Source of the DNA: Rhizophagus irregularis
Taxonomy: Eukaryota; Glomeromycota; Glomeromycetes; Glomerales; Glomeraceae
Direction: 5' to 3'
Length of the DNA: 64,000 nt
Assembly (NCBI RefSeq): GCF_026210795.1
Contig: NC_089457.1
Span: forward strand, 372,001 to 436,000
Shown: in pieces, positions 3,601-57,485 of the stretch
How positions within the stretch are numbered: position 1 is the first letter of the stretch
How the letters are laid out: the number at the start of each line of letters is the position of its first letter
Notes under the pieces: generated by a model
Told to the model about the DNA's origin: nothing
Database searches by the model: none
The model's input: the letters and a program-made list of their open reading frames with translations, nothing else
Position numbers and translations under genes: made by a program

Positions 3601-4676
3601 AAAATATCTTCAAATTGACAATCGGACTGCACCTTCAATGCAAAAACTTATTCATTGTGATGAACATTCATCAGATGATCAAAATAATTTAGAAACGGTT
3701 GATGATGATGAACAATGTCAAAATTTAGCCGGTATAAAATTATTTTAATATTTATTAATCATTTTCATCTTTTTTAATTTTAATTTTTATTTTAGAATCC
3801 ATTGAACCACAAATGGAAATTGAGAATATTGGGACTGCTGCACTTGAAGTTTCTTAGCTCTTGTTGGATGAATCAGATGATGAATCAAACATAAGAAATG
3901 AAGATGAAGTAACAAATATTTTGTTAGCAACTTTTTCTGATTTACGTTACATTCTTAAACAAAAACCAGTTCCTCAAAAGCAATTTAAAAGGTTTGATCC
4001 ACTGTTTACACCTGAAAGATTTGTACATTATAAAGCTATAATTGATATTTGAAAAAATCATGATGCCTTTACATGACATTCAAAAAGTGCCTTCAACAAA
4101 CAGGCACAACCTGAAACATCTGAAACAACTGAAAAATCTGGTTTATTTAATTTCAATAATGCTAATCGATTAATTACTGAATTAATAATTGATTTAAATG
4201 TTCGAAAAGAACGTTAGAAAGGACGTAAATGACTTGCAACTATTCCAATAGCTGTTGGAACTAATGGTAAATATTTCTTTAATTGGCATTGTAAAATTCA
4301 ATTATGTTTAAAGCTAAAATATTTAAGTGAATATTTTTTTTAAGTGCACAATATTATTGATGCAAATGTATCTGATATTCATTATCTAATTTCGGGTGGA
4401 TATTTGATCATTTATTCAAACAATAAACTTTATATTGCTCAAATTATCTCAATGTATTATCTGAATGTTTATAACAATCTTTGAACAAATACATGCGAAG
4501 CAGGAGGAAAATTATTTGCCCATATTCCAGCTAAAGAAGTTTTATATTATTTTAATTCACCACCTTTTGTTTCTCAAGGTTCTTTTTTTACTTTAACAAA
4601 AGAAAATTTGGAAATTTTTCAGTATTTTAAAACACCAGAAATGATATCAAATCTAGCAAAGATTTTTCATAAATAA
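690..4676 (+). pseudogene. Decayed transposase-like gene with N-terminal zinc finger
   Basis: Coding similarity can be followed through many frame breaks, in-frame stops and intron-like gaps. Near 700-770 there is a CxxC plus late histidine pattern, a BED/C2HC-like zinc finger. A block at 877-1647 (256 codons) has tryptophan-rich motifs and GMNGSFSGEKTF. Near 2500-2700 comes IGADGARSEF and a DPKHAKKTAWN segment, and near 3230-3300 a WEHVTEAFEHIFG motif. I recognise the order from a large fungal family of transposon-borne proteins with a GSEACEHIFG-type signature, but cannot name its superfamily. The last readable stop is at 4674-4676. A hAT MITE (2207-2450) sits inside and removing it with one 8-bp duplication restores reading. 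Not functional. Confidence 0.6.
2207..2450. mobile_element. hAT-type MITE, TAAGGTTGC family, copy 1
   Basis: 244 bp with inverted ends TAAGGTTGCTTGTC and GGCAAGCAACCTTA, flanked by perfect 8-bp target duplications CTCTGTAC (2199-2206 and 2451-2458). An 8-bp duplication is characteristic of hAT elements. It interrupts the decayed transposase-like gene. Three relatives lie at 36556, 37748 and 40410. Confidence 0.92.
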
Positions 4677-5547: not shown

Positions 5548-5939
5548 CACTGGTCAAAATAGTCCATTTCAGCAAAATTTTAAATTGCCAAATGTTGGAC
5601 GAAAGCTAGTCTAAATTTGGCCGATCATTGCCAAAAAAATCGTCAAAATTATTTATAGACGATTTGCACCATAACGCCTGCCACTTGTCAACAAATTGAT
5701 CAGTAAAAATTGGTAACAAATCGGTAAAATCAAATTGACGATTGTTAATAAACCTATAATTATTACCGATTTTGTACAGCTGATTTTAATTTTATAGTAA
5801 CAATTTATTAATTAAATTTTATTAATTTATTTTATTAAAAATTACATATTAATTAATATCTATCTATTATCTATATAAACCATCTACCGACTCTACTGTC
5901 TACCATCCATCATGCATTCACCCATCATCCTTACCTAAC

Positions 5940-8200
5940 ATGATAAAAGTCCAAAGAAAACCTACCAAAAAAGGAGGAAATGGTCAGTAATTCATTTTTT
6001 ATAATAAAAAAATTGAAGTTTCAAAAGAAACTTTCCCAATCTGATAAAATCCGAAGAGGAAACCTACAAAAAAAGTAAAGAAATGGTTAGTCAACCATTC
6101 CTTTTAATAAAAAAAATAAAGTTTTAAAAAATTTGAAACTTACACGCCCATCCAATAAAGTCCGAAGGGGGAAATCTACAAAAAAAAAGAAGAAACAATT
6201 AGTTTAACGTTTTTTTGATAAAAAATGAGTTTTAAAATATTTTCAAAACTTACCCCTAATTCGATAATGGAAACTTACAAAAAAAAAGAAGAAACAGTTA
6301 GTTCGTTTCTTTAATAAAAAAAGTAAAGTTTCAAAAAATTTGAAACTTACATGCCCATCCAATAAAGTCCGAAGGGGAAATCTACAAAAAAAATAAAAAA
6401 ACGGTTAGCAAACCGATTCTTTAATAAAAAAATTTGTTTTGAAATATTTGAAACTTACCAAATCAAAAATCTGAAGTGGAAACCTACAAAAAAAAGGAAA
6501 AAATGATTAGTTAAAGTTTTTTCGATAAAATAATTTGTAAGAAAAAAGAAAACAAAACTTTGAACACACCTATCCAACACCCAAGAACTGGAGGCCGAAA
6601 CCTACAAAATAGAAAAAAAATTTAAAAAAAAATTTTTTTAAAGAGTTTCAAAGTTTTCGAAACTCACCTAGTATATATCTAACGCCAATGAATCAGAAGC
6701 TGAAACCTACAAAGAAGAAAAAATAAATTAAAAAAAATTGTTTTTTTTTTGAGTTTCGATTCTTTCACTTCGAAACTCACCCATATATCCAAAGTCCAAG
6801 CCGAAACCTACAAAGAAGGATAAAAAAAAAATTAAAAAAAGTTTTTTTTTGAGTTTCGATTCTTTCACTTCGAAACTCATCCATATATCCAAAGCCCAAG
6901 CTGAAACTTACAAAAAAGAAAAAAAAATTAAAAAAATATTTTTTTAGAGTTTTGAAGTTTTCGAAATTCACCTAGTGTATATCCAAAGCCCAAGAACATA
7001 GAATAAAAAAAAACGTTAGAAATTAAAATTAACGTTTTTTTATATTAAAGTTTCTAAAATTCGTTCACTTAGTATGGGATTTGATATCCAAGTAGGAGCT
7101 GATTTCCCTACAATAATATAAAAAAAATGTTAAAAAACGTTTTTTTTTTAAAGAAGTTTCGAAAATGAAACTTACCTGGAATATCAGCATCCTCGTTGGT
7201 GCCAGTGTTGGCATTTTCTGGAATCTGGAATCTGGAAACATGTATTCCAGATTGATTCCAGTGGTTTTGGAAGCATTGGAATCAAATTTCCAGATTCCAG
7301 AAACCATTGGAATCAATTTGGAATCAAAATTCCAATGTTTCAGATTCCAGATTCCAGTAAAATTTTCATTGGAAACTGGAATTTCCCATCACTGGTTGGT
7401 GCTGAATTTCTACAAAAAAAATAAAAAAAAAATGTTAAAAATAACGTTTTTTATATTAAAGTTTCAAAAATTTTTGAAACTTATCTTTGGGATTCGGTAT
7501 TCACGCCAGAACTGATTTTCCTATAATTAAAATATAAAAAAAAACGTTTTTATTATAAAAACGTTTTATTAAAGAAAGTTTGAAATTTTTTTTTTGAAAC
7601 TTATCTTTGGGATTCGGTATTTACGCCGGAACTGATATCATTACAAAAATATTAAAAAAATAAAACGTTTTTAATTTAAAAACGTTTTATTAAAGAAAGT
7701 TTCAAAATTTTTTTTTCAAAACTTATCTTTGGGATTCGATATCCACGCCAGAACTGATTTCCCTACAAAAATATTAAAAAAAAAACATTTTTAGTTTAAA
7801 AACGTTTTATTAAAGAAAGTTCTGAAATTTTTTTTTGAAACTTAACTGGAACATCGGTATTCACGTCAGAACTGATTTCCTATATAAAAGTGTAAAAAAA
7901 AAAATGTTTTTTACGTTAAAAATGTTTTTTTTAAAAGAAAGTTTCGAAATTCTTTCGAAACTTACCTAGAATATCGGTATTCATGCCAGAACTGATTTCC
8001 TATATAAAAGTGTAAAAAGAAACATTTTTTAATGTTAAAAAATGTTTTTTTTAAAGAAAGTTTTAAAAATTTTTCAAAACTTTACCTGGAATATCGGTAT
8101 CCATGCCGGAGCTGATTTCCTGCAAAAAAAAAACATTTTTTAACATTAAAAAACGTTTTTTTAAAGAATGTCTCGAAACTTTTTTGATTTAATAAAAAGT
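5940..8200 (-). repeat. Tandem exon-like module array inside element B
   Basis: Roughly 18-19 modules spaced 90-120 bp. On the minus strand each reads: long T-tract ending in GTAG, a block of about 25-30 nt starting GTTTC, then GTAAGTTTC or GTGAGTTTC. The donor-like GTAAGT lies within an inverted repeat (GTTTC with GAAAC about 10-15 nt later), and a second inverted repeat (AACGTTTTT / AAAAACGTT) follows in most spacers. Blocks vary in length, so a conserved reading frame is not apparent. A 192-bp hAT MITE interrupts one module. Confidence 0.7.
7203..7394. mobile_element. hAT-type MITE with CAGTG ends nested in B
   Basis: 192 bp from CAGTGTTGGCA to CCCATCACTG, flanked by perfect 8-bp duplications GTTGGTGC (7195-7202, 7395-7402). 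The interior is a string of direct and inverted copies of GGAATCTGG / CCAGATTCC. ORFs called across it are incidental. Confidence 0.88.
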
Positions 8201-8676
8201 TATCAAATTCAATGTATACATTTACCTGAAAAAATAAGGTGTAAGAAAGGGGAGGAAAAAGGATGAAAGAGAAGGAGGAAGAAAGCGAAAAGTTTAAAAA
8301 GTTAAAAAAAGTTTGTTTAAAAAGATCTGTAAAATATCGATCCAGATCATCTGATCATTTCAGTCACTAATTTGTCGAATTATTGCCAACTAGTTACCAT
8401 TTGGCAAATTTGGCAAAATCATGTTGATTTATATGACTAATCGGTATAATTTTACTGAATAATTTTAAAGGAATCATTTTTCGTATAACAATCGGTATAA
8501 GTTGATTTTTCACCAAAAGACTGAACAAACTTTCATTTAACAATCAGTATCAGTTGATTTGTGATTGATTTTACTGATTTTTGCCATTGGTCAAAAAATG
8601 TGACGAATCACATGACCAATCAGCAAAAATTATGCCAAAAGCTCTTAACGGTCGAAAGTTTTGATTTTGACCAGTG

Positions 8677-28563: not shown

Positions 28564-29414
28564 CATTAGTTGAAATAAGGCAAATCGGCTAAAATCGAAT
28601 TACGGCTGAAATATGTCCGATTTTTACAAAAAAAATATATTCTGATTGTTATTCGATTGACTGCCAATCAGATGTACTTTGGAACTTAAATCATACTAAA
28701 TTCGGACAGTCAATCAGATGTACTTCAGAACTTAAATCGGACAAAAATCGGACTATTTTTTTCTGAATTTATTTCAATTTTTATTATCAAATTTATTAAA
28801 TGTATTTATTAATTAAATGCTTAAAAACTTTATAATTATATTATTATTATTAGATCTATTTAAATTACAAATAAATATTGCTAATTCAAAATTATAATAA
28901 AATAATAATAATAAAATAAACCATGATTTGTACTTACGAATCTTGGTTTTAATTCATCCATTCGTCGAAAATCCACCCAAACCTATAAAAAAAAAAAGAA
29001 CGGTTATTAGTAACCGTTCATTAATATTAATAAAAAAAATTTAACCAAGATTCGTATATACCTACAAATCTTGATTTTTTTCCGTTCTTCAGAACTTGAA
29101 AGCCCACCCGAACCTATAAAATAAAAGAAAGGAACGGTTAGTACCCGTTTCAAAATAATAAAAAATAAAAATAAAAAATAAACCAAGATTCGTACTTACT
29201 TACGAATCTTGGTTCCTTTCTTCTGATCTTTGGAAGTCAACCCAAAACCTAAAAAAAAAAAAAAGGAACGGTTAGTAAACTGTTCCAAATAATAAAAAAA
29301 AAATAAAACCAAAACCAAGATTCGTATATACTTAAGAATCTTGGTTCTTTTCCGTACTTCGGAATTCAAAAATCCACCCGATCCTAAAAAAAGAAAAGAA
29401 CGGTTATTAGTAAC

Positions 29415-30752
29415 TAAGGAATGGCCCTCAAATGATTTTTCAAATCTGCAATATTGCGGATTTTGGAGTAAAATTGCGGTTAGTAATCCGCAATTCCACA
29501 ATTCTGATTGGCTAATGTTTTTAAATAATAAATTATTTTTTAAACGTTTATAACGATAAATAAATAAAAATGTTTTTTAAATCAATATAATAAATTTATT
29601 TATTTATTTGTTTATTTGTTTATCATTCGTCTTAAGCATAGACCAATATTTTTCTAAATTGCATAACTGTGCCGTTTCTTAGAAAAAATTCTGGACAATT
29701 TTGTCCATTTTTAAAATAAATCTCCCCGCTATATATATTTTCATCCAGCAACCCTATAAAAAGAAAAGAAATGTTAGTGACGTTTCTTTTTAAAGAAAAT
29801 TAGCAACAAACATCTTTTCATTCGGTTCTCTCTTACCTCAATTTCAAAATTCTGGTCGTGTCTTTATTTATTAAAACCCTACGAAAAGAAAAAAAAATAA
29901 ATTAATTAAATTTATCAAAAAAAAATAATGAAAATTTTCCGGTTCTCCTTTACCTCAATCCGGAATTCTGGTCATACTTTTCGTCTGGCAACTCTAGTGA
30001 AAATTATTAAAAAAAAGTAACAAAATCCCTTCCCGGTCCTCTCTTACCTCAATTCCAGAAGTTTGGCCATGCTTTTCGTTTGGCAACTCTACAAAAATGA
30101 AAAAAAAAATAAATTAGTTTGAAAATATTAAAAAAAAAAGCAACAAAAACCCTTCCCGGTCCTTCTTTATCTTAATTTCAAAAGTCCGGTCATGCTTTTC
30201 TTTCAGCAACTCAACAAAAACAAAAAAAAAAATAAATTAGTTATTAAAAAAAATAACGAAAACCCTTCCCGGTCCTTCTCTTACCTCAATTTCAAAAGTC
30301 TGGCCATACTTTTAGTCCAGCAACTCTACAAAATCAAAAAAAAAAAAAAATTATTAAAAAAAACAACTTGCCGTCCGGTTTCTCCTTATCTACATGACTC
30401 CATTTTAAAAAATTCAGTCATAATTTTTGTCCAGAAACTTCAATAAAAAAGAAAAAGAGATCATCAGATGATTTGTACTATGCAATTTATCTGATAATCT
30501 GTGTCAGACTGGAGGACTATAATTGGCAAATCCGCAAATCCGCAAATATTCCGCAATTTTGTAAAGTACCACAATTGTACCGCAATTGAATTGCGGTACT
30601 TTAGATTATTTGCGGAATTGCAGAATATTTGCGGAATTGCGAATAATTGCGAATTGCAGATTTGCAGATATTTAGACTTCAAAATCCGCAATGTTACGCA
30701 ATACCGCAAATCGCAATTATTCCGCAATTGCCTATTTGCAGCGTCATCCTTA
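29415..30752 (-). mobile_element. hAT-type element carrying a 41-nt module array, copy 1
   Basis: 1338 bp, ends TAAGGAATGGCC and GCGTCATCCTTA, perfect 8-bp duplications TTAGTAAC (29407-29414, 30753-30760). It is the inverted counterpart of 34293-35744. The TAAGG end next to GATGAC is followed by about 250 bp packed with TTGCGGA / TCCGCAA motifs. The middle (29700-30430) carries exon-like modules on the minus strand: TTTTTGTAG, a 41-nt block beginning AGTTGCC, then GTAAGAG. It is nested in CACTA-like element D. Confidence 0.92.
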
Positions 30753-30812
30753 TTAGTAACCATTCATTAATAATATTAAAAAAAAAAGAAAAAAAAATCA
30801 AGATTCGTAATT

Positions 30813-30966
30813 ATACATGCTGCCCAAATTATTTTGGGATGCCATAATTCATTCGGTTTATATATAATTTACTATGTAAAGTGCCAAAATAATTTGGGAT
30901 GCCATAATTGAATTTGGGATTTTACTTATAATTACGGCAGTCCAAAATAATTTGGGTGGCATGTAT
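30813..30966. mobile_element. Mutator-like MITE, 154 bp
   Basis: Ends ATACATGCTGCCCAAATTAT and ATAATTTGGGTGGCATGTAT form long inverted repeats. The flanking duplication is 10 bp, ATTCGTAATT (30803-30812, 30967-30976), in the 9-11 bp range typical of Mutator-like elements. Nested in element D. Confidence 0.9.
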
Positions 30967-31124
30967 ATTCGTAATTAGTAGTTATGAATCTTGATTTTCC
31001 ATTCTTCAGAATTTGGAAATCCACCCAATCCTTAAAAAAAAGAAAAGAACGGTTATTAGTAACCGTTCATTAATAAAATTAAACAAAACAAAAAAATTAA
31101 AACCAAGATTCGTATATACTTACG

Positions 31125-31593
31125 TAGTGCTCCGAAATAAGTCGAGTTGACTTGCGAGTTGGTCGAGTCGAGTCAAGTCAAGTTGAGTTGAAAATTACAA
31201 TCAAATCAAATCGATTCAAGTCAAGTTAATAATTTAATAAAATCGAGTCGAGTCAAGTTAAGCCGAATTAAACATAATTCCGGCCAAATTTATGGAATTT
31301 CTTTTTTTGGAAATTATGTTACACAAAATCCGAGACGAAAAATTTTTGAAATTTACAAAAATGGAAATTTGTGAAATGGCTATCACCAAAAAAAGGAAAT
31401 GATCGGCATAGCCGAATAAAATCACGTGATTTAATTCGACTTGACTCGATTCGATTTGACGGGCCAACTTGACTCGAATCGAGTCAAGTTTATATTTTTT
31501 ATAATTTTAACTCGACTCGACTCGACTCGATTTAACTCAAGTCGAATTGAGTTTACATATAACTCGACTCGACTCGACTCGTTCGGAGCTCTA
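31125..31593. mobile_element. hAT-type element rich in GACTCGA repeats
   Basis: 469 bp, ends TAGTGCTCCGAA and TTCGGAGCTCTA, perfect 8-bp duplications TACTTACG (31117-31124, 31594-31601). Both ends are packed with GACTCGA / TCGAGTC. The middle (about 31270-31430) holds the GGAAATTATG-type repeat also found inside other elements. It is inserted exactly at a splice-donor-like site of the array. Confidence 0.92.
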
Positions 31594-33247
31594 TACTTAC
31601 GAATCTTGGTTCTTTTCCGTTCTTCGGAACTCGCGAACCTAAAAAAAAAAAGAACGGTTATTAGTAACCGTTCATTAATAAAATTTAAAAAAAAACAAAA
31701 TTAAAACCATGATTCGTATATACTTACAAATCTTGGTTTTTTTTTCATTCTTCAGAACTCGGAAGCCCCTTCTGAGACTCCGAACCTATAAAAAATAAAA
31801 GAAAAAGAACGGTTAGTAATAACAATTCCAAATATTAAAAAAAGAAAAAAAAACTAAGATTCATAGTACGAAATCTTAGTTTTTTTCCGTTCTTCGGAAA
31901 CTCACCTAAACGGCCGAACCTATAAAAAAAGAAAGAAACAGTTAGTAACCGTTCATATAATAGGAAAAAAAATAAAATAAAAAATAAACCAAGTTTCGTA
32001 CTCGTACTTACGAAACTTGGTTCTTTCCATTCTTCAGAACTCGAAAGCCAACCCGATCCTAAAATAATAAAGAAAAAAATGGTTATTAATAACCGTTCGT
32101 TAATATTACAAAAAAAAACAAAAAAAATTAAACCAAGATTCGTTTACTTAAGAATCTTGGTTCTTTTCCATTCTTCGGAACCAGGAAGTCCGCCCGAAAC
32201 CTATAAAAAAAAAGGAACGGTTAGCAACCGTTCCGAAATATTAATAAAAAAAATTAAACCAAGATTCGTTTACTTACGAATCTTGGTTCTTTTCCATTCT
32301 TCGGAACTAGGAAGCCCGCCCAAAACCTATAAAAAAGAAAGGAACAGTTAGTAACCATTCCAAAATATTAATAAAAAAAATTAAACCAAGATTTGTTTAC
32401 TTACGAATCTTGGTTCTTTTCCATTCTTCGGAACCAGGAAGCCCACCCGAAACCTATAAAAAAGAAAGGAACGGTTAGTAACCGTTCTGAAAAATTAAAA
32501 AAAATAAAAAACAAGATTATTAAGAATCTTGGTTCTAAATCCCCTTCCTCTTTCCCCTTCCCCATTTTTTATTTTAAAGTCCAGTTTCGTGTTAAAGCCA
32601 GCGTCCTCCTGCTTCTAACAAAAAAAATAATGAAAAGAAACGTTAGTTTGTTTCTTAAATTAACAAAACTTCACTTTCCCGTTTTTTACCTTAAAGTTTA
32701 GTTTCGTGTTAAAGCTGACATCCTACAAAAAAAAACAATGAAAAAAAATTCGTTTTTTAAATTAAAAAAAAAAAAATTAAAAAAAATATGTAAGTTTCAA
32801 AACGAAACTTACATTACTTCCAAGAAAAAGAGGCAGAAGAAAGGTATGAGAAAAGGGAGGGGGAGAAAGGAAGAAGCAAGGAAAGGATGAAAGGGAAAGG
32901 AAAGGACAATAGGGAAAGGGAGGGGAAGGACGAAAGGACAGGGGAAAGTAGGGATGAAGTGAAGTAAAAGGAAGGAATGAAAAGGGAAAGTTTAAAAAAG
33001 ATCTTTTTTTAAACTTTGATATGCATAACGCGTGATGTTTAATTAGACTATTCGACTAATGTCTAATCATAGATCATGGTCGAATTTTTAATTGAATATA
33101 GGCCGGCCTTTTTTGACTAGTGAAATCAGAAATTGGCTATGCCGAATGTCACCTGATATACAGACAATCATCAATTATTAGCCGAAATTTAGCCGAAATA
33201 AGGACGATTTGCCTTATTTCCGATTTGCCTTATTTCGACTAGTGTAC

Positions 33248-34292: not shown

Positions 34293-35744
34293 TAAGGATG
34301 ACATCGCAAATAGGCAATTGTGGAATAATTGCGATTTGCAGTATTGTGAAACATTGCGGATTTTGAAGTCTAAATATTCACAAATCCGCAATTCGCAATT
34401 ATTCGCAATTCCGCAAATATTCTGCAATTCCGCAAATAATCTAAAGTACCACAATTCAATTGCGGTACAATTGCAGTATTTTACGAAATTGCAGAACATT
34501 TGTGGATTTGCAGATTTGCCGATTATAGTCCGCCAGTCTGACACAAATTATCAGACGAATTGCATAGTATAAATCATCTGATAATCTCTTTTTCTTTTTT
34601 ATTGAAATTTCTGGACAAATATTACGACTGAACTTTTTTAAATGGAGTCATAAAGATAAGGAGAAACCAGACAGAAAGTTGTTTTTTTTTAATAAATTTA
34701 TTTTTTTTTTTGATTTTGTAGAGTTGCCAGACGAAAAACATGGTTGGACTTTTGAAATTGAGGTAAGAGAAGGACTGGGAAGGATTTTTGTTATTTTTTT
34801 TTTAATTTATTTTTTTTTCATTTTTGTAGTGTTGCCAGACAAAAAGTACAGTCGGATTTTTAGAATCGAGATAAGAGAGGACTGGGAAGGATTTTTGTTA
34901 TTTTTTTTAATACTAATTTATTTTTTTTTGTTTTTGTAGAATTGCTAGAGAAAAAGCATGACCGGACTTCTGAAATTAAGGTAAGAAAGGACCGAGAAGG
35001 ATTTTTGTTACTTTTTTTTTAATATTTTCAAACTAATTTATTTTTTTCATTTTTGTAGAGTTTCTAGATGAAAAGCATGACCGAACTTCTGGAATTAAGG
35101 TAAGAGAGGACTGGGAAGGGATTTTGTTACTTTTTTTTTAATAATTTTCATTAATTTATTTTTTTTTTCATTTTTGTAGTATAGAATTGCCAGACGAAAA
35201 GTATGACCAGACTTCTGGATTGAGGTAAGGGAAATTTTCATTTTTTTTTTGATATAATTTAATTAATTTATTTTTTTTTTTTCGCAAGATTAATTAAAGA
35301 TATGACCAGAATTTTGAAATTGAGGTAAGGGAGGACTGAAGGAAAAGATGTTTGTTGGCTATTTTCTTTAAAAGAAATATTTCTACTTTTCTTTTTATAG
35401 GGTTGCTGGATGAAAATATATATAGCAGGGAGACTTATTTTAAAAAATGGACAAAATTGTCCAGAATTTTTTCTAAAAAATGGCGCAGTTATGCAATTTA
35501 GAAAAATATCGGTCTATGCTTAAGATGAATGATAAACAAATAAACAAATAAACAAATAAATTTATTATATTGATTTAAAAAACATTTTTATTTATTTATT
35601 GTTATAAAACAGTTAAAAAATAATTTATTATTTAAAAATATCAGCCAATCAGAATTGTGGAATTGCGGATTACTAACCGCAATTTGACTCCAAAATCCGC
35701 AATATTGCAGATTTGAAAATCATTTGATTGAGGGCCCAACCTTA
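34293..35744 (+). mobile_element. hAT-type element carrying a 41-nt module array, copy 2
   Basis: 1452 bp, ends TAAGGATGACATCGC and GGGCCCAACCTTA. Flanking 8-mers CCCAATAT (34285-34292) and CCCGATAT (35745-35752) match at 7 of 8. It is in inverse orientation to copy 1. Exon-like blocks with flanking TTTTTGTAG and GTAAG: 34722-34762, 34830-34870, 34940-34980 and 35059-35099, each exactly 41 nt, plus a fifth of about 40 nt near 35185. The donor of the second block is mutated to ATAAG. Confidence 0.88.
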
Positions 35745-39479: not shown

Positions 39480-41010
39480 TGTGAACATTTCACAACATTT
39501 TTTAACGATTTTAATAAAAAACGTTGCGAAATGTTTTTTATTTTTAATTTAAAATAAAAAAACCGTTTTGCAATGGTTTTTTTACTATTTTAATAAAAAA
39601 CGTTGTAAACGTTTTTTATTATTAATTTATCGAAAAAAATGTTTCGCAACATTTTTTTAATGATTTAATAAAAACGTTGCGAAATATTTTTTATTTTTAA
39701 TTTAAAATAAAAAATATCGTTTCGCAACAGTTTTTTTACTATTTTAATAAAAAACGTTGCAAAACGTTTTTTATTATTAATTTACCGAAAAAAAACATTT
39801 TGCAACATTTTTTTAACGATTTTAATAAAAAATGTTGTGAAATGTTTTTTACTTTTAATTTAAAAGAAAAAACTGTTTTGCAACAGTTTTTTAACTATTT
39901 TAATAAAAAATGTTGCGAAACGTTTTTTATTATTAATTTATTGAAAAAAAAACATTTCGCAACATTTTTTTAACAATTTTAATAAAAAACGTTGTGAAGC
40001 GTTTTTTATTTTTAATTTAAAAGAAAAATACCATTTCGCAACGGTTTTTTTAAATATTTTAATAAAAAATGTTGCGAAATATTTTTTATTATTAATTTAA
40101 AAGAAAAAAACCATTTCGCAACAGTTTTTTTAACTATTTTAATAAAAAAACGTTGCAAAACATTTTTTACTTTCAATTTAAAAGAAAAAAACTATTTTGC
40201 AACGGTTTTTTTTAACTATTTTAATAAAAAACGTTACGAAACATTTTTTATTATTAATTTATTGAAAAAAAAATGTTTCAAAACGTTTCAAAACGGTTTT
40301 TTAACAATTTTAATAAAAAACGTTGTGAAACGTTTTTTATTTTTAATTTAAAATAAAAAATACCATTTCGCAACAGTTTTTTAAATATTTTAATAAAAAA
40401 TGTTGCGAATAAGGTTGCTTGTCTAAACCTCTTCAAAATCCTATGATTAGTTTCGTCAAAATTTTACTATAGATTTATTATAGTTTCGGCAGAGTTTTGG
40501 CAGTTTCGGAATTTATAATAAGTTTTGGCAGTTTCGCCTTTCTCCAAAGTTTCGCCAGTTTTTTAATATAACTTTAATATAGTTTCAGCAGAATTTTGCT
40601 TTTCGGCAAAACGCCATCTTGCCTAAACTCCTAGGTTTCGGCAAGCAATCTTAGTTGCGAAACGTTTTTTACTTTCAATTTAAAAGAAAAAATACTGGTT
40701 TGCAACGGTTTTTTTAACTATTTTAATAAAAAAAATGTTGCAAAACATTTTTTATTATTAATTTATTGAAAAAAAATATTTTGCAACATTTTTTTAACGA
40801 TTTTAATAAAAAACGTTGTGAAATGTTTTTTATTTTTAATTTAAAATAAAAAATACCATTTCGCAACAGTTTTTTTAAATATTTTAATAAAAAATGTTGT
40901 GAAACATTTTTTATTATTAATTTATTGAAGAAAAAAATGTTTTGCAACATTTTTTTCGATTTTAATAAAAAATGTTGTGAAATGTTTTTTATTTACCATT
41001 TTGCAATGGT
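39480..41010. repeat. Hairpin array, TTTCGCAACGTTTTTT family
   Basis: About 14 hairpins. Arms of the type TTTCGCAACGTTTTTT and AAAAAACGTTGCGAAA flank a spacer near ATTTTAAT, repeated every 55-120 bp. Unlike the other arrays there are no flanking GTAAGT or TTTGTAG signals, so hairpins occur here without splice-like modules. Short ORFs within it are incidental. Confidence 0.78.
40410..40653. mobile_element. hAT-type MITE, TAAGGTTGC family, copy 4
   Basis: 244 bp, ends TAAGGTTGCTTGTC and GGCAAGCAATCTTA, perfect 8-bp duplications GTTGCGAA (40402-40409, 40654-40661). Inserted in the hairpin array. Very close in sequence to copy 1. Confidence 0.93.
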
Positions 41011-52220: not shown

Positions 52221-54057
52221 GGATTAATTTTACATTCACCTCCGGTGAATTTCACCGGGGTGAATTTCACCTCGATCTGCAATGCATTAAAATTATTAAA
52301 ATTTTAAATTTACCCCGGTGAAATTCACCAGGTGATTTCATATTACACAAACGCGTAACGCATATTTTGTTTTTTGCTTTCTTGTAGTATTATTTTCAAA
52401 ATGACCAGCTTTTACTGGAACTTCTTAAGGTAAGATTTTTTTTATTTTCTTATTACTTCGCTAGTTTAATGTTCTTTTTCTCTTATGCTAACTTGTTAAC
52501 TTGTTTTTTAGAAAACAACAATTTCAATAACTTCAAGAAGTTAAGGTAAGACTCACTTTTATTGCTAGTATTTTTATTTTTCTACCATTCCCTTTGCTTC
52601 CACTTTGTTTTTAATTATCCTTTTCATTTATCATTGTCCCTTTCGCTCCCATATCATTTTTCGTCACTCCATATCGCTTCATATCATTTTTCATCACTCC
52701 ATATCGCTTCATATCATTTTTCATCACTCCATATCGCTTCATATCGTTTCATATCAGTTTTCATCACTCCATATCGCTTCATATCGTTTTTCATTACTCT
52801 ATATCGCTTCATATCATTTTTCATCACTCCATATCGTTTCATATCGTTCCATATCGGTTTTCATCACTCCATATCGCTTCATATCGGTTTTCATCACTCC
52901 ATATCGCTCCATATCATTTTTCATCACTCCATATTGTTCCATATCATTTTTCATCACTCCATATCGCTTCATATCATTCCATATCAGTTTTCATCACTCC
53001 ATATCGCTTCATATCAGTTTTCATCACTTCATATCGCTTCATATCGGTTTTCATCACTCCATATTGCTTTTCATCACTCCATATCGCTTCATATCGGTTT
53101 TCATCACTCCATATCGCTTTTCATCACTCCATATCGCTTTTCATCACTCCATATCGCTTTTTATCACTCCATATTGCTTTTCATCACACCATATCGGTTT
53201 TCATCACTCCATATTGCTTTTCATCACTCCATATCGCTTTTCATCACTCTATATCGCTCCATATCATTTTTCATCACTCCATATCGCTCCATATCGTTTT
53301 TTATCACTCCATATCGTTTCATATCATTTTTCATCACTCCATATCGCTCCATATCGTTTTTCATCACTCTATATTGCTTCATATTGTTTTTCATCACTCC
53401 ATATCGCTTCATATCATTTCATATCGGTTTTCATCACTCCATATCGCTCCATATCGGTTTTCATCACTTATATCGCTTCATATCGTTTTTCATCACTCCA
53501 TATCGCTTCATATCATTCCATATCGGTTTTCATCACTCTATATCGCTTCATATCGGTTTTCATCACTCCATATCGCTTCATATCAGTTTTCATTACTCCA
53601 TATCGCTCCATATCGTTTTTCATCACTCCATTTCGTTTTGCAACATTCCACTTTATTTTTCATCATCTCAATTCACTTTGTATTGTTTCATTTTGTTTTA
53701 CATCATCCCATTTCTGTTTTCATCAACCTATTTCACTTTCATTTCATTTTCATTATTATAAAGGATTATATATTATGCATTTATACTATAGGTTTTAAAT
53801 TAATAAAAAATCTGGATTAAATGGTTAGTGGATGGGTGTAATACTAGTTTAATTGAAGTTATGTTAATTTAAAAAGAAACTTTTTGTCAATAAAACTTTA
53901 AAAATTTATGCTTAAATGGTCAATAGAAAAAACTTTTTTTTACATGTTTATTCAAATACAAAAAAAATTTGATGCGATGAATTTTACTAAATTTTAATTA
54001 ATAATAAATATCACGTGATATGGTGAATTTCACCTCCGGTGAACGTTAAAATGATCC
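52221..54057. mobile_element. Mutator-like non-autonomous element with modular minisatellite
   Basis: 1837 bp, left end GGATTAATTTTACATTCACC, right end GGTGAACGTTAAAATGATCC, matching over about 36 bp as inverted repeats and rich in GGTGAAATTCACC palindromes. Perfect 9-bp duplications ATATTATAA (52212-52220, 54058-54066) indicate a Mutator-like mechanism. Near 52401-52550 are two exon-like blocks: ATGACCAGC...TTAAG followed by GTAAG, and a 34-nt block between TTTTTTAG and GTAAG. The minisatellite follows. Confidence 0.88.
52630..53640. repeat. Minisatellite built of 10-nt modules
   Basis: Array of CATATCGCTT, CATATCGTTT and TTCATCACTC modules combined into 20-, 30- and 40-bp units, about 35 units. 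Stop codons are almost absent on the plus strand, so two overlapping frames stay open for about 400 codons each (52562-53761, 52605-53798) and a shorter minus frame reads MERYGVMKND repeats. Open frames here follow from the monomer and are not evidence for a protein. Confidence 0.88.
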
Positions 54058-54366: not shown

Positions 54367-54859
54367 ATATAAAATAAAACTAAAAATATAAAGTAAACAT
54401 ATTTATTTTATCTTCATTTATTGAATTTCATAAAATATAGGCATTAAAAATTTAATTTAGGGCAGTTATTACTTCAATTTTTCATGCATCATATTGATTA
54501 ATTTTCTTATAATATTTTGAAAAAATATTTTTGACAATCTAAGCAAATAAGACAATTGGACAGGCATTCAAATGAAATATCAAAAAAGTTATTATTCAAA
54601 TAAAACAGTAAAAGTAAAGGTCTTTAAAGGTAAAGGTAATAAAGGTATCATACTAATGATACTACTGTATTTTATAATTATACATTTACATATATTATAT
54701 ATATAACATATCGCATGTTCATTATTTTTCAATTCACTGACAAGCTGGCAAGTTGGCAACCTAACAGATTCTCAGCAACAAAATTTTCAAATATTTCCTT
54801 TATTTTGAAATTTTTTTTTAAAAAAAAAGGGCAAAAGTTTCCGAATAAAAAAAATAAAA
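54367..54859. other. AT-rich spacer
   Basis: Flank of the outer pogo-like nest. No recognisable gene or bounded repeat. Confidence 0.4.
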
Positions 54860-55640
54860 AAAATAAATAAAATATTCCTTCCTATCTTACAATTCAAATA
54901 TAAGCCAAAATCTAAATCTGAAAGAACATCCTTAAGAAAAAAAAAGGAACATTAATAATGTTTCCAATAGCAAAAAAAAATGAAAATCTCCACCTTCTAA
55001 TTTACCTTCATAACCCAAGTCAAAATCCACGCGTTCCTTAAGTAAAAAAAAGGAAAGAACGTTAAATGATGTTCCCAATGACAAAACAACAAAAGTTCAA
55101 CTAAATTTATATATAACCTAAGCCAACATCTAGGTTTAGATTGGTATTCCTTAAAGAAAAGAAAGAAAATGAACATTAGTAATATTTTAATGAAACTGAA
55201 ATGACCCCACTCTAACTTACCTTTCATAATCCAAACTGAAAACAAGTCCAAGGAGACACTCTCTAAAAGAAAAGAAGAAAAAGAAATGTTAATAACATTC
55301 TCAAAGACAATTAAAATACCCTTTCAACTTATCTTTATAGTCCAAGCTAAGGTCCAGGTTCAGGAAGGGTGTTTCTTAAAGAAAAGAAACAAAAGAAACG
55401 TTAATAATATTCCCAAAAATAAAAAAACATTAAAATACCCTTTCCAACTAACCTTTATAGCCTAAGCCGAAATCCAGGCCCAGAAAGAATGTTCCCTAGT
55501 AAAGAAAAGAAGTAAAAGGAACATTAATGACATTTCCAAGAAAAAAGAAAAAAGAAATTTACATTTACCTTACAAAATCCAAGCCATCCAAGTCATTCCA
55601 AAGTCCAAGTTCAAATCCAAGTCAGTTCTTAAAGAAAAAA
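54860..55640 (-). repeat. Tandem exon-like module array, fourth family
   Basis: Six to seven modules spaced about 120-130 bp. On the minus strand: TTTCTTTAAG or TTTTACTTAAG, a 31-60 nt block rich in TTGGAC and TTGGATT and ending TATGAAG or TATAAAG, then GTAAGTTAG, GTAAAT or GTTAGT. Spacers contain GAACGTTAATAATGTTC-like inverted repeats. I could not find terminal inverted repeats, so the carrier element is unknown. Confidence 0.6.
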
Positions 55641-56156
55641 AAGGTAAATTATTTTTTTAAATTAGAGAAGTGCTCATTGATCAGATTTATGTGATGTGGT
55701 CATATTAATATTAAAGATCGATCCATAGACCATTTACAAATTATATAAACCTTTGATTAATGAAACTCTTTTATTTATTTGAACCCCAAATATATCAACG
55801 ATCATTAATTGAGTGCTTGTAAACAAAAACTAATCGGCCGAAATGGTCAAGATATTTTGTCCATGGTATATCCGAAATCACTTCATCTCTTGCGTTAATA
55901 TAATTTTGTATATTATATGAATAGAAATGAAAGCGTAGTAGTAGATAGGCGAAAAGTAGCATTAGATAGTATGGAAACTCATTATCCTTTAAATTAACTT
56001 TTTACATTCATTTACAAGAAAAATAATTTCGCTTTGAACTTTTATGCTTTATTGATGCTCATTCCTGCAATTACACTTTTTTTCTCCTAATATTCCCTAA
56101 TTATAATATTTTATATAAAAACTCACAAAATGAAAATTACATACATTGTTTATTTT
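55641..56156. other. Intergenic region, 3' side of deaminase-like gene
   Basis: AT-rich with no clear ORF. The closest AATAAA-like signal downstream of the gene is weak. Confidence 0.4.
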
Positions 56157-57485
56157 CTAAATTTTAAATTTTAATTCCATTTTGTTACATACATTATCAA
56201 ACCTTCCTATAAATCCCTTATATTTTATATATTGATATCTATTATTACCATCATCATCTAAATCTGGACTGTTCCCGCCACTGTCAGAATCCCCCGGTAA
56301 ACTCCTGGTATAGCGTTCTATTTTTTTCTCTATGATTTGATCAAGTTTTTCTAGTATATATTTCAGGGATTTATCCTTGAAGTCGCTATTCTTTACATGC
56401 GGAAGTAACCATCTATCATATAATTTCTGGTGTTTCCCGGGGACGACGATGTTATATCCTTGTTCTATTGCAAAATTAATATAAAGTTCGCACAAGTAAC
56501 AGCATCTCTTTGACACTGCTATAAACACCCTACTTTTAAAATCATTGTCGATAATTAAGGAGGCCAAAATGTGCATCTCCGCATGTAAGTATATACATTT
56601 TTCAACGTTATCGTTAAGTTGTAGTTGTTTTGTGGCATTGTCGGTATATACTTTATGGATTCTTTCCATTACTCCAGGCTTTTCCAAACACCTAGTCATG
56701 AAACGATTATATTTGTTTTCGTCTTCGTTAATAAACCTTTTGATAATATTTTCCCATGAATATATGGGCTGTTTATTTATGATAACAGGGCTTGCGCTAT
56801 TCACTTTAATGTTAGAGAATAGTGGTTTATATTGTATATTCATTGCACAATCTATGATACCTTTAATAGACCCAAAATAAGATCCCACTTTCTTAATATG
56901 GCCTAAAAATTTTTGGGAGATGTTAGGATTAACTTTAGCTTTAATTTGCTTATAATACTCGTAACAAACTAGGGATATGTTGATAGGAGTTGCTGAATCA
57001 CCACACTCTGCCGAAATATAATTTCTTAAAGATTTAACGTGTTCATTATCGCCATTATTAATATCATTCTTAAGTTTATCCCATCTAAACTCAAATTTAG
57101 TTCTGCAGTATGACATCACAGCCAGGTAAAAAGCCGATTCGATATCTGTTGATTTCATGGGAGAATTTTTCGATATAACTTTCAGATAATTCGTAATATC
57201 ATCAATATACTTCGCATCTTCGTTGAGCCAATCAAAGTTCTTAGAAATGTAAATTTCACTGCTATCTTTTAAAATTCTCAACCACAATGCAACTACTTCT
57301 TTGTCCCTTGCAAGTATTGTTGCTAAATAACAGGAAAATCTATCATGAATATTCAAGTCAGCGACTTCATCTCTTGCTTGACCGACAACAAAGTTGATAC
57401 AACGGGCAACACATTCTTTACTATACAACTCCTTCTCACGATCTTTTTCTTCCTCACACTTTTTCTCACTTTTTCTTACGCTCAT
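56157..57485 (-). CDS. OTT_1508-like deaminase-fold protein, intronless
   Basis: 442 residues from ATG at 57485 to stop at 56157, uninterrupted. The zinc-deaminase signature is visible: HAE at residues 301-303 (His ligand, catalytic Glu) and C329-x-x-C332 in VSKRCCYLCELYINF, followed by a GYNIVVPGKHQKLYDRWLLP segment. This spacing and context match the fungal OTT_1508-like branch of the deaminase superfamily; the substrate is unknown. The 300-residue N-terminal part is helical, starts with a Lys/Glu-rich tract and has no domain I can name. The C-terminal tail (395-420) is acidic and Asp/Gly/Ser-rich. No signal peptide or membrane segment. It is free of stops in a region where all neighbours are decayed, which suggests recent or continuing selection. 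Confidence 0.8.
   Translation of the reverse strand: MSVRKSEKKCEEEKDREKELYSKECVARCINFVVGQARDEVADLNIHDRFSCYLATILARDKEVVALWLRILKDSSEIYISKNFDWLNEDAKYIDDITNYLKVISKNSPMKSTDIESAFYLAVMSYCRTKFEFRWDKLKNDINNGDNEHVKSLRNYISAECGDSATPINISLVCYEYYKQIKAKVNPNISQKFLGHIKKVGSYFGSIKGIIDCAMNIQYKPLFSNIKVNSASPVIINKQPIYSWENIIKRFINEDENKYNRFMTRCLEKPGVMERIHKVYTDNATKQLQLNDNVEKCIYLHAEMHILASLIIDNDFKSRVFIAVSKRCCYLCELYINFAIEQGYNIVVPGKHQKLYDRWLLPHVKNSDFKDKSLKYILEKLDQIIEKKIERYTRSLPGDSDSGGNSPDLDDDGNNRYQYIKYKGFIGRFDNVCNKMELKFKI

What the first reader, a model, noticed from the sequence alone, without database searches (positions are those of the whole stretch)
28925..32545. Tandem arrays of splice-like modules on DNA transposons
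Read on the minus strand, about 13 successive 125-135 bp units each have a polypyrimidine tract ending TATAG, a 48-49 nt block and a GTAAGT donor. This is what a string of microexons separated by about 80-nt introns would look like, and the intron length matches the introns of the intact channel gene in this window. Three other arrays with unrelated sequence have the same layout. I know of no described transposon type built of serial microexon cassettes. Possible roles are splicing the insertion out of host transcripts, forming circular RNAs, or producing a repetitive peptide; all are conjecture.
Basis: partly seen in the sequence, partly recalled or inferred. Interest (0 to 1): 0.85.

Follow-up and report, generated by a model that had tools for sequence, protein, structure and literature searches.

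The report
Transposon arrays of tiny splice cassettes
Jumping DNA elements of a symbiotic soil fungus carry long rows of very short, apparently non-coding exons separated by short introns with strong splice signals and hairpin folds; I found no description of such a transposon cargo, and existing RNA reads could show at once whether it is spliced.

Summary
Window 28564-33244 is one non-autonomous CACTA transposon (TIR CACTAGTCG..., 3-bp TSD TAC) whose minus strand carries about 13 intron + microexon units. Three later insertions interrupt them, and not every unit keeps GTAAGT or TATAG. The assembly is Rhizophagus irregularis. Genome-wide, three GTAAGT in a row at array spacing occur 1503 times against 88 for the control. 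In 138 segments chosen by donor alone on one chromosome, a strong acceptor occurs in 115 (shuffles 82 of 690; reverse complement 0 of 138), and acceptor plus branch site in 94 (shuffles 11 of 690). Array introns fold far better than 16 inferred host introns. Carriers include CACTA and hAT-like elements. Exon lengths do not keep a reading frame, so a repetitive peptide is unlikely. Best reading: transposon-borne, serially spliced, non-coding transcription units built of structured, introner-like introns. Splicing itself, and any benefit to the element, are not shown; no RNA data could be searched. No paper describing such a cargo was found.

The parts
28564..33244 (-). whole non-autonomous CACTA element (F1 copy), 4681 bp with its nested insertions
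   Evidence: TIR matches at 28564-28588 (2 mismatches) and 33220-33244 (exact) (converted from C29 coordinates); flanking TAC/TAC
28564..28588 (+). terminal inverted repeat, array 3' side
33220..33244 (-). terminal inverted repeat, array 5' side
32851..32930 (-). CT-rich stretch (95 percent pyrimidine over 80 nt), promoter-like by inference
   Evidence: found in 17 of the 20 F1-type loci examined there
32807..32812 (-). first donor GTAAGT of the transcription unit
   Evidence: same place in L001
31593..32551 (-). first run of exon-intron units of the array
31124..31591 (.). insertion into a donor site, flanked by a copy of GTAAGTATA on each side (borders by eye)
   Evidence: read; split hits
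31008..31123 (-). continuation of the array (one unit)
30820..30990 (.). second small insertion (borders approximate, by eye)
   Evidence: read; absent from the like place of L001
30750..30813 (-). part of a unit, cut at its branch palindrome by the next insertion
29415..30752 (-). nested hAT-like F2 element (TAAGGATG.../...CATTCCTTA, direct repeat GTTACTAA on both sides, by eye) with its own cassettes (donors GTAAGAG at 30284, 30047, 29836)
   Evidence: read; donors; F2 family
28901..29414 (-). last run of exon-intron units
28768..28860 (-). terminal exon region with AATAAA; in this copy the terminal acceptor reads AA instead of AG
34293..35744 (+). second F2 element (TAAGGATG...CAACCTTA, near-direct repeat CCCAATAT/CCCGATAT, by eye) with a cassette array and a long last exon
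5560..8480 (-). F3 element with two cassette arrays and an upstream CT-rich stretch (borders approximate)
54700..55800 (-). decayed copy of the F4 array family (borders approximate)

Best explanation
The array is a non-coding RNA polymerase II transcription unit carried by a non-autonomous CACTA transposon. Transcription starts at or near the CT-rich stretch (inferred). The transcript holds about 5-23 GT-AG introns, mostly 70-110 nt, each with a strong donor, a TACTAAC-type branch site, a T-rich tract and TAG (signals shown in DNA). Intron removal would join exons of about 30-60 nt, and the transcript would end at AATAAA in a terminal exon (signals shown, use inferred). Hairpins place the branch site at or near an apex and, in several families, the donor at the foot or loop of a stem; I infer that they shorten the introns and help efficient removal. 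Arrays grew by tandem duplication of intron + exon units (inferred from unit similarity and varying unit number). Intron modules of the same plan, some with no detectable sequence similarity, sit in several transposon families including hAT-like ones. Likely benefit, inferred only: a transcript through the element, its own or the host's, is processed like a gene transcript, so that the insertion is less likely to end host transcripts early or to be silenced.
For: Triple-donor census 1503 vs 88 for the reversed pattern. Segments chosen by donor alone: acceptor 115/138 vs 82/690 shuffled vs 0/138 reverse complement; acceptor + branch site 94/138 vs 11/690 vs 0/138. Best perfect stem found without use of the branch motif: 63 of 115 introns; in 52 of the 56 with a branch motif its centre lies within 4 nt of the branch A. 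Donor-hairpin pattern 618 hits vs 0 control; in 50 distinct cores the stem goes on inward by 3.68 pairs vs 1.01 with swapped arms, maximum 1.80 in 2000 swaps. Array introns fold with mean z -2.87 (76 of 115 below -2) vs +0.16 (0 of 16) for inferred host introns; branch motif 92/115 vs 0/16; TAG 111/115 vs 7/16. In 280 aligned F1 units the acceptor AG is kept at 99-100 percent where other G columns average 82. CT-rich stretch in 17 of 20 F1-type loci and AATAAA downstream in 15 of 16; AAUAAA is the main poly(A) signal of this fungus (PMC10234402, passages). Carriers: CACTA TIR, 3-bp TSD in 13 of 17 TIR pairs, tnp2 transposase in a longer element with the same TIR; F4 with TAGAGGTGTGCTC ends and 8-9 bp direct repeats in 4 of the 5 copies with a TIR pair.
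Against: No RNA evidence was available. No DNA copy of a spliced product for 3 of 3 junction patterns. Within F1 the donor G is no better kept than other G columns (82 percent both) and the CpG test at the junction was not decisive. Arm-swap covariation inside families is weak: F1 donor hairpin 0.845 own vs 0.819 swapped (max 0.839 of 1000), both branch hairpins and the F3 donor hairpin not different. 52 of 115 introns have no perfect stem in the branch region. 5 of 31 chromosome-1 arrays show no strong acceptor. Longer transposase-bearing elements with the same TIR lack the array (L021 and L023 compared), so it is not needed for transposition. Two F4 and two F2 copies examined have no CT-rich stretch. 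Host introns are only 16, inferred by me.
Confidence: 0.58

Rival explanations
1. Captured gene fragment turned satellite: transposons picked up a host gene piece with one or more introns, which multiplied in tandem by unequal exchange. The splice signals are inherited, may or may not be used, and give no benefit.
For: Longer relatives with transposase lack the array; the donor G is no better kept than other G columns within F1; pairing inside families decays; unit numbers vary between copies.
Against: The same plan occurs in several blastn groups (5 of 10 groups on C1 with acceptor + branch site in at least half of the segments) and on CACTA and hAT-like carriers; stems differ in sequence yet stay complementary; signals are stronger than in the inferred host introns.
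Confidence: 0.25
2. Camouflage cassette: the array serves to splice the insertion out of host transcripts, as a multi-part introner would, with complementary palindromes of different introns helping to skip the array as a whole.
For: Strong splice signals on a mobile element; palindromes make introns of one array complementary to each other (inference).
Against: F1 begins with its own CT-rich stretch and donor and ends with AATAAA, the layout of a transcription unit rather than of an intron; each unit would add an exon; insertion inside host genes was not tested.
Confidence: 0.1
3. Protein-coding microexon gene making a repetitive or variable peptide, like the micro-exon genes of flatworms.
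For: Some F1-type arrays joined in silico are open over long runs (L017 259 of 262 codons).
Against: Exon lengths 220/170/183 by remainder of three; the same exon falls in three phases; openness of F1 is explained by few TA dinucleotides; F4 exons hold more stop trinucleotides than shuffles.
Confidence: 0.03
4. DNA-level array of palindromic binding sites for transposase or a host protein; likeness to introns is accidental.
For: CACTA elements are known for repeated subterminal binding sites (recalled); palindromes are regular.
Against: The four longer elements with the same TIR have 0-1 copies of the branch palindrome motif per strand; acceptor and branch motifs sit at splice-like distances on one strand only, 0 of 138 on the reverse complement.
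Confidence: 0.04

Closest known systems
Introners / introner-like elements (van der Burgt 2012: recalled, seen only as a reference; Gozashti 2022 PMC9860276: passages; Amoebophrya introners PMC7789003: passages)
   Same: Repeated spliceosomal introns, in part with hairpins, in part tied to non-autonomous DNA transposons
   Different: Introners are single introns inserted in host genes. Here intron + exon units are repeated head to tail inside a transposon, with a promoter-like start and a poly(A) signal; hairpins surround the branch site or donor rather than joining the two intron ends. The Gozashti text has no hit for Rhizophagus or Glomer-; [quoted passage not shown]
Stwintrons of Hypoxylaceae (PMC9024468, passages)
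   Same: Fungal repeated introns with internal symmetry and predicted stems
   Different: Stwintrons are nested introns in host genes; no tandem microexons, no transposon body
Micro-exon genes of flatworms (recalled; only a search listing seen)
   Same: Strings of very short exons
   Different: Those encode proteins with frame-keeping exons (recalled); here exon lengths do not keep frame
Non-autonomous CACTA and hAT elements with captured or repetitive internal sequence (recalled)
   Same: TIRs, TSDs, no transposase of their own, foreign internal sequence
   Different: Internal sequence is a serial array of complete splice modules, shared in plan by different carrier families
SOS splicing of transposons from animal mRNA (recalled; none of the 8 rows listed holds that term)
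   Same: Idea that a transposon is removed from RNA with help of paired repeats
   Different: Recalled as not using GT-AG signals and as using the element's terminal repeats; here GT-AG modules lie inside

Membership tests
CACTA (EnSpm/CMC) transposon, carrier of the F1 array | terminal inverted repeats beginning CACTA | tested here: met
   102 sites with up to 3 mismatches vs 0 for the control; the window copy begins CACTA on one side and CATTA on the other
CACTA (EnSpm/CMC) transposon, carrier of the F1 array | 3-bp target site duplication | tested here: met
   13 of 17 TIR pairs, window copy TAC/TAC; 1 pair with 2 bp, 3 with none
CACTA (EnSpm/CMC) transposon, carrier of the F1 array | tnp2-type transposase in a full-length relative | tested here: met
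   L021 ORF vs PF02992 E 1.4e-14; L021 and L023 share TIR and subterminal sequence with F1 copies. The array-bearing copies were not found to carry it.
hAT-like transposon, carrier of the F4 and F2 arrays | 8-bp target site duplication and short TIR | tested here: inconclusive
   F4: 5 of 7 loci gave a TIR pair; 4 of the 5 have 8-9 bp direct repeats, border shifts of up to 2 allowed, one clean at 8 bp. F2: 8-bp repeats read by eye, exact in L032, L033 and the nested copy, one mismatch in L034 and in 34293-35744; the automatic scan, set on other borders, did not give them. No transposase looked for.
Introner | near-identical introns inserted at many positions in host genes | tested here: inconclusive
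   0 of 16 inferred chaperonin introns fold with z below -2 or hold the branch motif; no wider survey of host genes
Introner | the mobile unit is itself one intron | tested here: not met
   F1 mobile unit spans TIR to TIR and holds many introns and exons
Micro-exon gene | frame-keeping exons (lengths in multiples of three) | tested here: not met
   220/170/183 of 573 exons
U2-type spliceosomal intron | GT...branch A...polypyrimidine...AG in order and spacing | tested here: met
U2-type spliceosomal intron | removed from RNA in vivo | not testable with these tools
   no RNA reads; DNA copies of junctions not found

The most novel reading that the evidence does not exclude
A class of DNA transposon cargo not described before: serial arrays of structured introns and non-coding microexons, in an estimated several hundred copies per genome (extrapolated from 31 clusters on most of one chromosome), carried by different transposon superfamilies, whose transcripts are cut by the spliceosome some 5-23 times. 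They would be natural high-efficiency splicing substrates with branch sites on hairpin tips, and could give transposon RNA the marks of a gene transcript, or be a standing source of ready-made introns and exons.
Probability: 0.4. Interest if true: 0.9.

Novelty: categorically new. Interest (0 to 1): 0.8.

Why it matters
If spliced, these arrays would be a way in which selfish DNA uses the spliceosome, different from introners, and would bear on how exons and introns can arise in bulk and how transposon RNA is told from gene RNA. They are also a natural test of whether a branch site in a hairpin apex helps splicing. The abstract of PMC11075540 (start seen) says that two-thirds of the transposable elements of this fungus remain unclassified; some of these may be of this kind. 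Published RNA reads for the same strain should decide it.

Tried and rejected
Coding test by in-silico joining: rejected coding. The exon finder allows only 24-90 nt exons and 45-170 nt introns, so the length distributions are partly set by it; 5 of 69 arrays with fewer than 3 exons were dropped.

CpG deamination asymmetry at the exon/intron border as a sign of selection: not decisive, because units share ancestry. Within-family arm swapping: weak or no signal. Search for DNA copies of spliced products: 0 of 3. Rfam on 7 loci: nothing reached a gathering score. Pfam on 10 window ORFs: only an RNase H match below its cut-off and an OTT_1508-like deaminase. Literature (listings; passages): no description of such arrays; only open-access papers are held.

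Host introns were placed by my own scoring between Pfam match blocks in five chaperonin loci; 18 were placed, 2 longer than 130 nt were dropped. Array introns run from the donor to the best-scoring acceptor, which cuts some of them short (for instance the L069 example printed there).

In one search the 11 cores shorter than 9 nt were dropped before the count of 50. In some searches the group named 'C1 others' also holds the four window arrays, by the way I selected it; loci L019 and L031-L041 are in none of the three groups.
Full report
Genome. The window lies in an assembly of 146,748,485 bases in 32 contigs. Contig C13 is 5,085,394 bases long, exactly the scaffold N50 reported for the 32-scaffold R. 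irregularis DAOM197198 assembly (PMC10234402, passages). I take the organism as R. irregularis on that ground.

The element. TIR matches place one element at 28564-33244, flanked by TAC on both sides. 102 TIR sites exist in the genome with up to 3 mismatches, 0 for the control. Of 17 TIR pairs in my loci, 13 have identical 3-bp flanks, 1 has 2 bp and 3 have none. Longer elements (6.8-7.1 kb; L021-L024) have the same TIR. In L021 an ORF matches Transposase_21/tnp2 (PF02992, E 1.4e-14). L021 and L023, compared with 5 and 2 F1 copies, share only the ends with them; L021-L024 hold 0-1 copies of the branch palindrome motif per strand. The array copies are therefore non-autonomous CACTA elements, and the array is not part of the transposase carrier.

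The array. In L001, a copy without the window's insertions, reading 5' to 3': TIR, CT-rich stretch, first donor, a run of introns with GTAAGT or a near form, TACTAAC/TACTAAT mostly 21-29 nt before the acceptor, T-rich tract and TAG, exons of 38-58 nt, then a terminal stretch. A CT-rich stretch of at least 88 percent pyrimidine stands in 17 of 20 F1-type loci. A terminal acceptor TTTGTAATTTAG is present in 14 of 16 copies looked at; the window copy has AA there and L015 lacks the stretch. AATAAA follows in the 15 copies that have the stretch. AAUAAA precedes 56.7 percent of poly(A) sites in this fungus (PMC10234402, passage). The window copy is damaged by three insertions, one of them (29415-30752) a second array-bearing element that landed in a branch palindrome, and by lost donors.

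Other families. F4 (L025-L028 parsed) has up to 23 introns, mostly 76-80 nt, exons mostly 32, 42 or 43 nt, donor mostly GTAAGTTG and branch site mostly 25-27 nt before CTTTAG. Its ends are TAGAGGTGTGCTC/GAGCATACCTCTA; 5 of 7 loci gave a TIR pair and 4 of these 5 have 8-9 bp direct repeats, hAT-like by form. F2 (34293-35744, the nested copy, L032-L035) has ends TAAGGATG/CATCCTTA; 8-bp flanking repeats were read by eye, as my scan used other borders. F3 (about 5560-8480) has two arrays and a CT-rich stretch.

Beyond chance. The pattern of three GTAAGT spaced 111-141 bases occurs 789 + 714 times vs 36 + 52 for the pattern read backwards. All 31 clusters listed on C1 (the listing stops near 7.78 of 8.0 Mb) were held. 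Between successive donors, 138 segments were tested for what had not been selected: a strong acceptor in 115, vs 82 of 690 dinucleotide shuffles and 0 of 138 reverse complements; acceptor plus branch motif in 94 vs 11 and 0. Five loci (L043, L046, L047, L050, L068) show none. By blastn the 31 loci fall into 10 groups; in 5 groups at least half of the segments have acceptor plus branch motif, in 2 more only acceptors, in 3 neither. From about 100 listed matches in 31 clusters I extrapolate several hundred arrays in the genome; this is an estimate.

Hairpins. In the 115 introns with an acceptor, the best perfect stem in the branch region was sought without using the branch motif: found in 63; in 52 of the 56 of these with a branch motif the stem centre is within 4 nt of the branch A. 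The other 52 introns had no perfect stem of 5 bp with a G-C pair. GTAAGTTTCG followed within 5-35 bases by CGAAACTT occurs 618 times, control 0. Among 61 distinct inner cores from the printed hits, the 50 of at least 9 nt extend the stem by 3.68 pairs on average vs 1.01 when arms are swapped between introns, maximum 1.80 of 2000; 39 of 50 have three or more extra pairs. Stems vary in sequence but remain complementary. Inside families the same kind of test is weak or negative, which may mean that single copies decay after insertion. Mean folding z is -2.87 for 115 array introns and +0.16 for 16 inferred host introns (Mann-Whitney, host introns vs 26 locus means, p 4e-7).

Coding. 573 exons from 64 arrays: remainders of three 220/170/183; median 43 nt; 588 introns, median 83 nt. 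Some F1-type arrays are open over long runs, but the same exon falls in all three phases and few TA dinucleotides explain it (345 stop trinucleotides vs 360 in dinucleotide shuffles). F4 exons have more stop trinucleotides than shuffles (204 vs 170). The group of the other C1 arrays plus the four window arrays has fewer than shuffles (284 vs 338, range 318-361), which I cannot explain.

What is not shown. No RNA data could be searched. No DNA copy of a spliced junction was found for 3 families, which does not speak against splicing. Within F1 the donor G is as variable as other G positions, while the acceptor AG is kept at 99-100 percent. So use by the spliceosome is an inference from signals, spacing, strand and folding; a benefit to the element is a further inference.

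Comparison. Introners are the nearest idea: spliceosomal introns spread in part by DNA transposons. The F1 mobile unit is not one intron but a TIR-to-TIR body with many, and the units keep exons between them. Of the papers on R. irregularis that I looked into by passages, PMC11075540 and PMC8647823 name CMC-EnSpm families and report expression of such elements, with no hit for 'intron' in either text; PMC10234402 has no hit for CMC. The transposon layer is known; the array module is, as far as these searches reach, not.

Noticed in passing
39486-41002: Tandem array of period about 78-81 with palindromes like GTTGCGAAACG, related in look to the intron hairpins but without GTAAGT donors seen.
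   Followed up: no
L019:1500-2520: Array of branch-type palindromes (CGGAACGTTGGCTAACGTTCCG) without clear donors or acceptors, directly upstream of intact cassettes.
   Followed up: no
L019:3650-3760 and reverse complement of L069 at about 3740-3850: Two different arrays share one 3' module beginning ACCTTGTTATGGTTGTGTCAC and ending in CAATCCAATTATAACAAG. Rfam gave no match there.
   Followed up: partly
29415 and 30752: The nested F2 element sits in a branch palindrome of the F1 array, flanked by GTTACTAA on both sides.
   Followed up: partly
31600 and 31123: A small element inserted into a donor site duplicated GTAAGTATA, so both copies keep a donor.
   Followed up: no
56157-57485 (minus): ORF of 442 aa with an OTT_1508-like deaminase domain (PF14441, E 4e-15), upstream of the decayed F4 array on the same strand.
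   Followed up: no
52650-53635: Minisatellite of about 30 bp units lying under three overlapping open frames of 401-409 aa on the plus strand.
   Followed up: no
C9:1033107-1049497, C30:146461-162619, C10:4801085-4813147, C17:960936-981792: F1 TIRs also occur in pairs 12-21 kb apart, possibly larger composite or heavily nested elements.
   Followed up: no
exons of C1 arrays L042-L070 and the four window arrays: Fewer stop trinucleotides than dinucleotide shuffles (284 vs 338), unexplained given the lack of a fixed frame.
   Followed up: no
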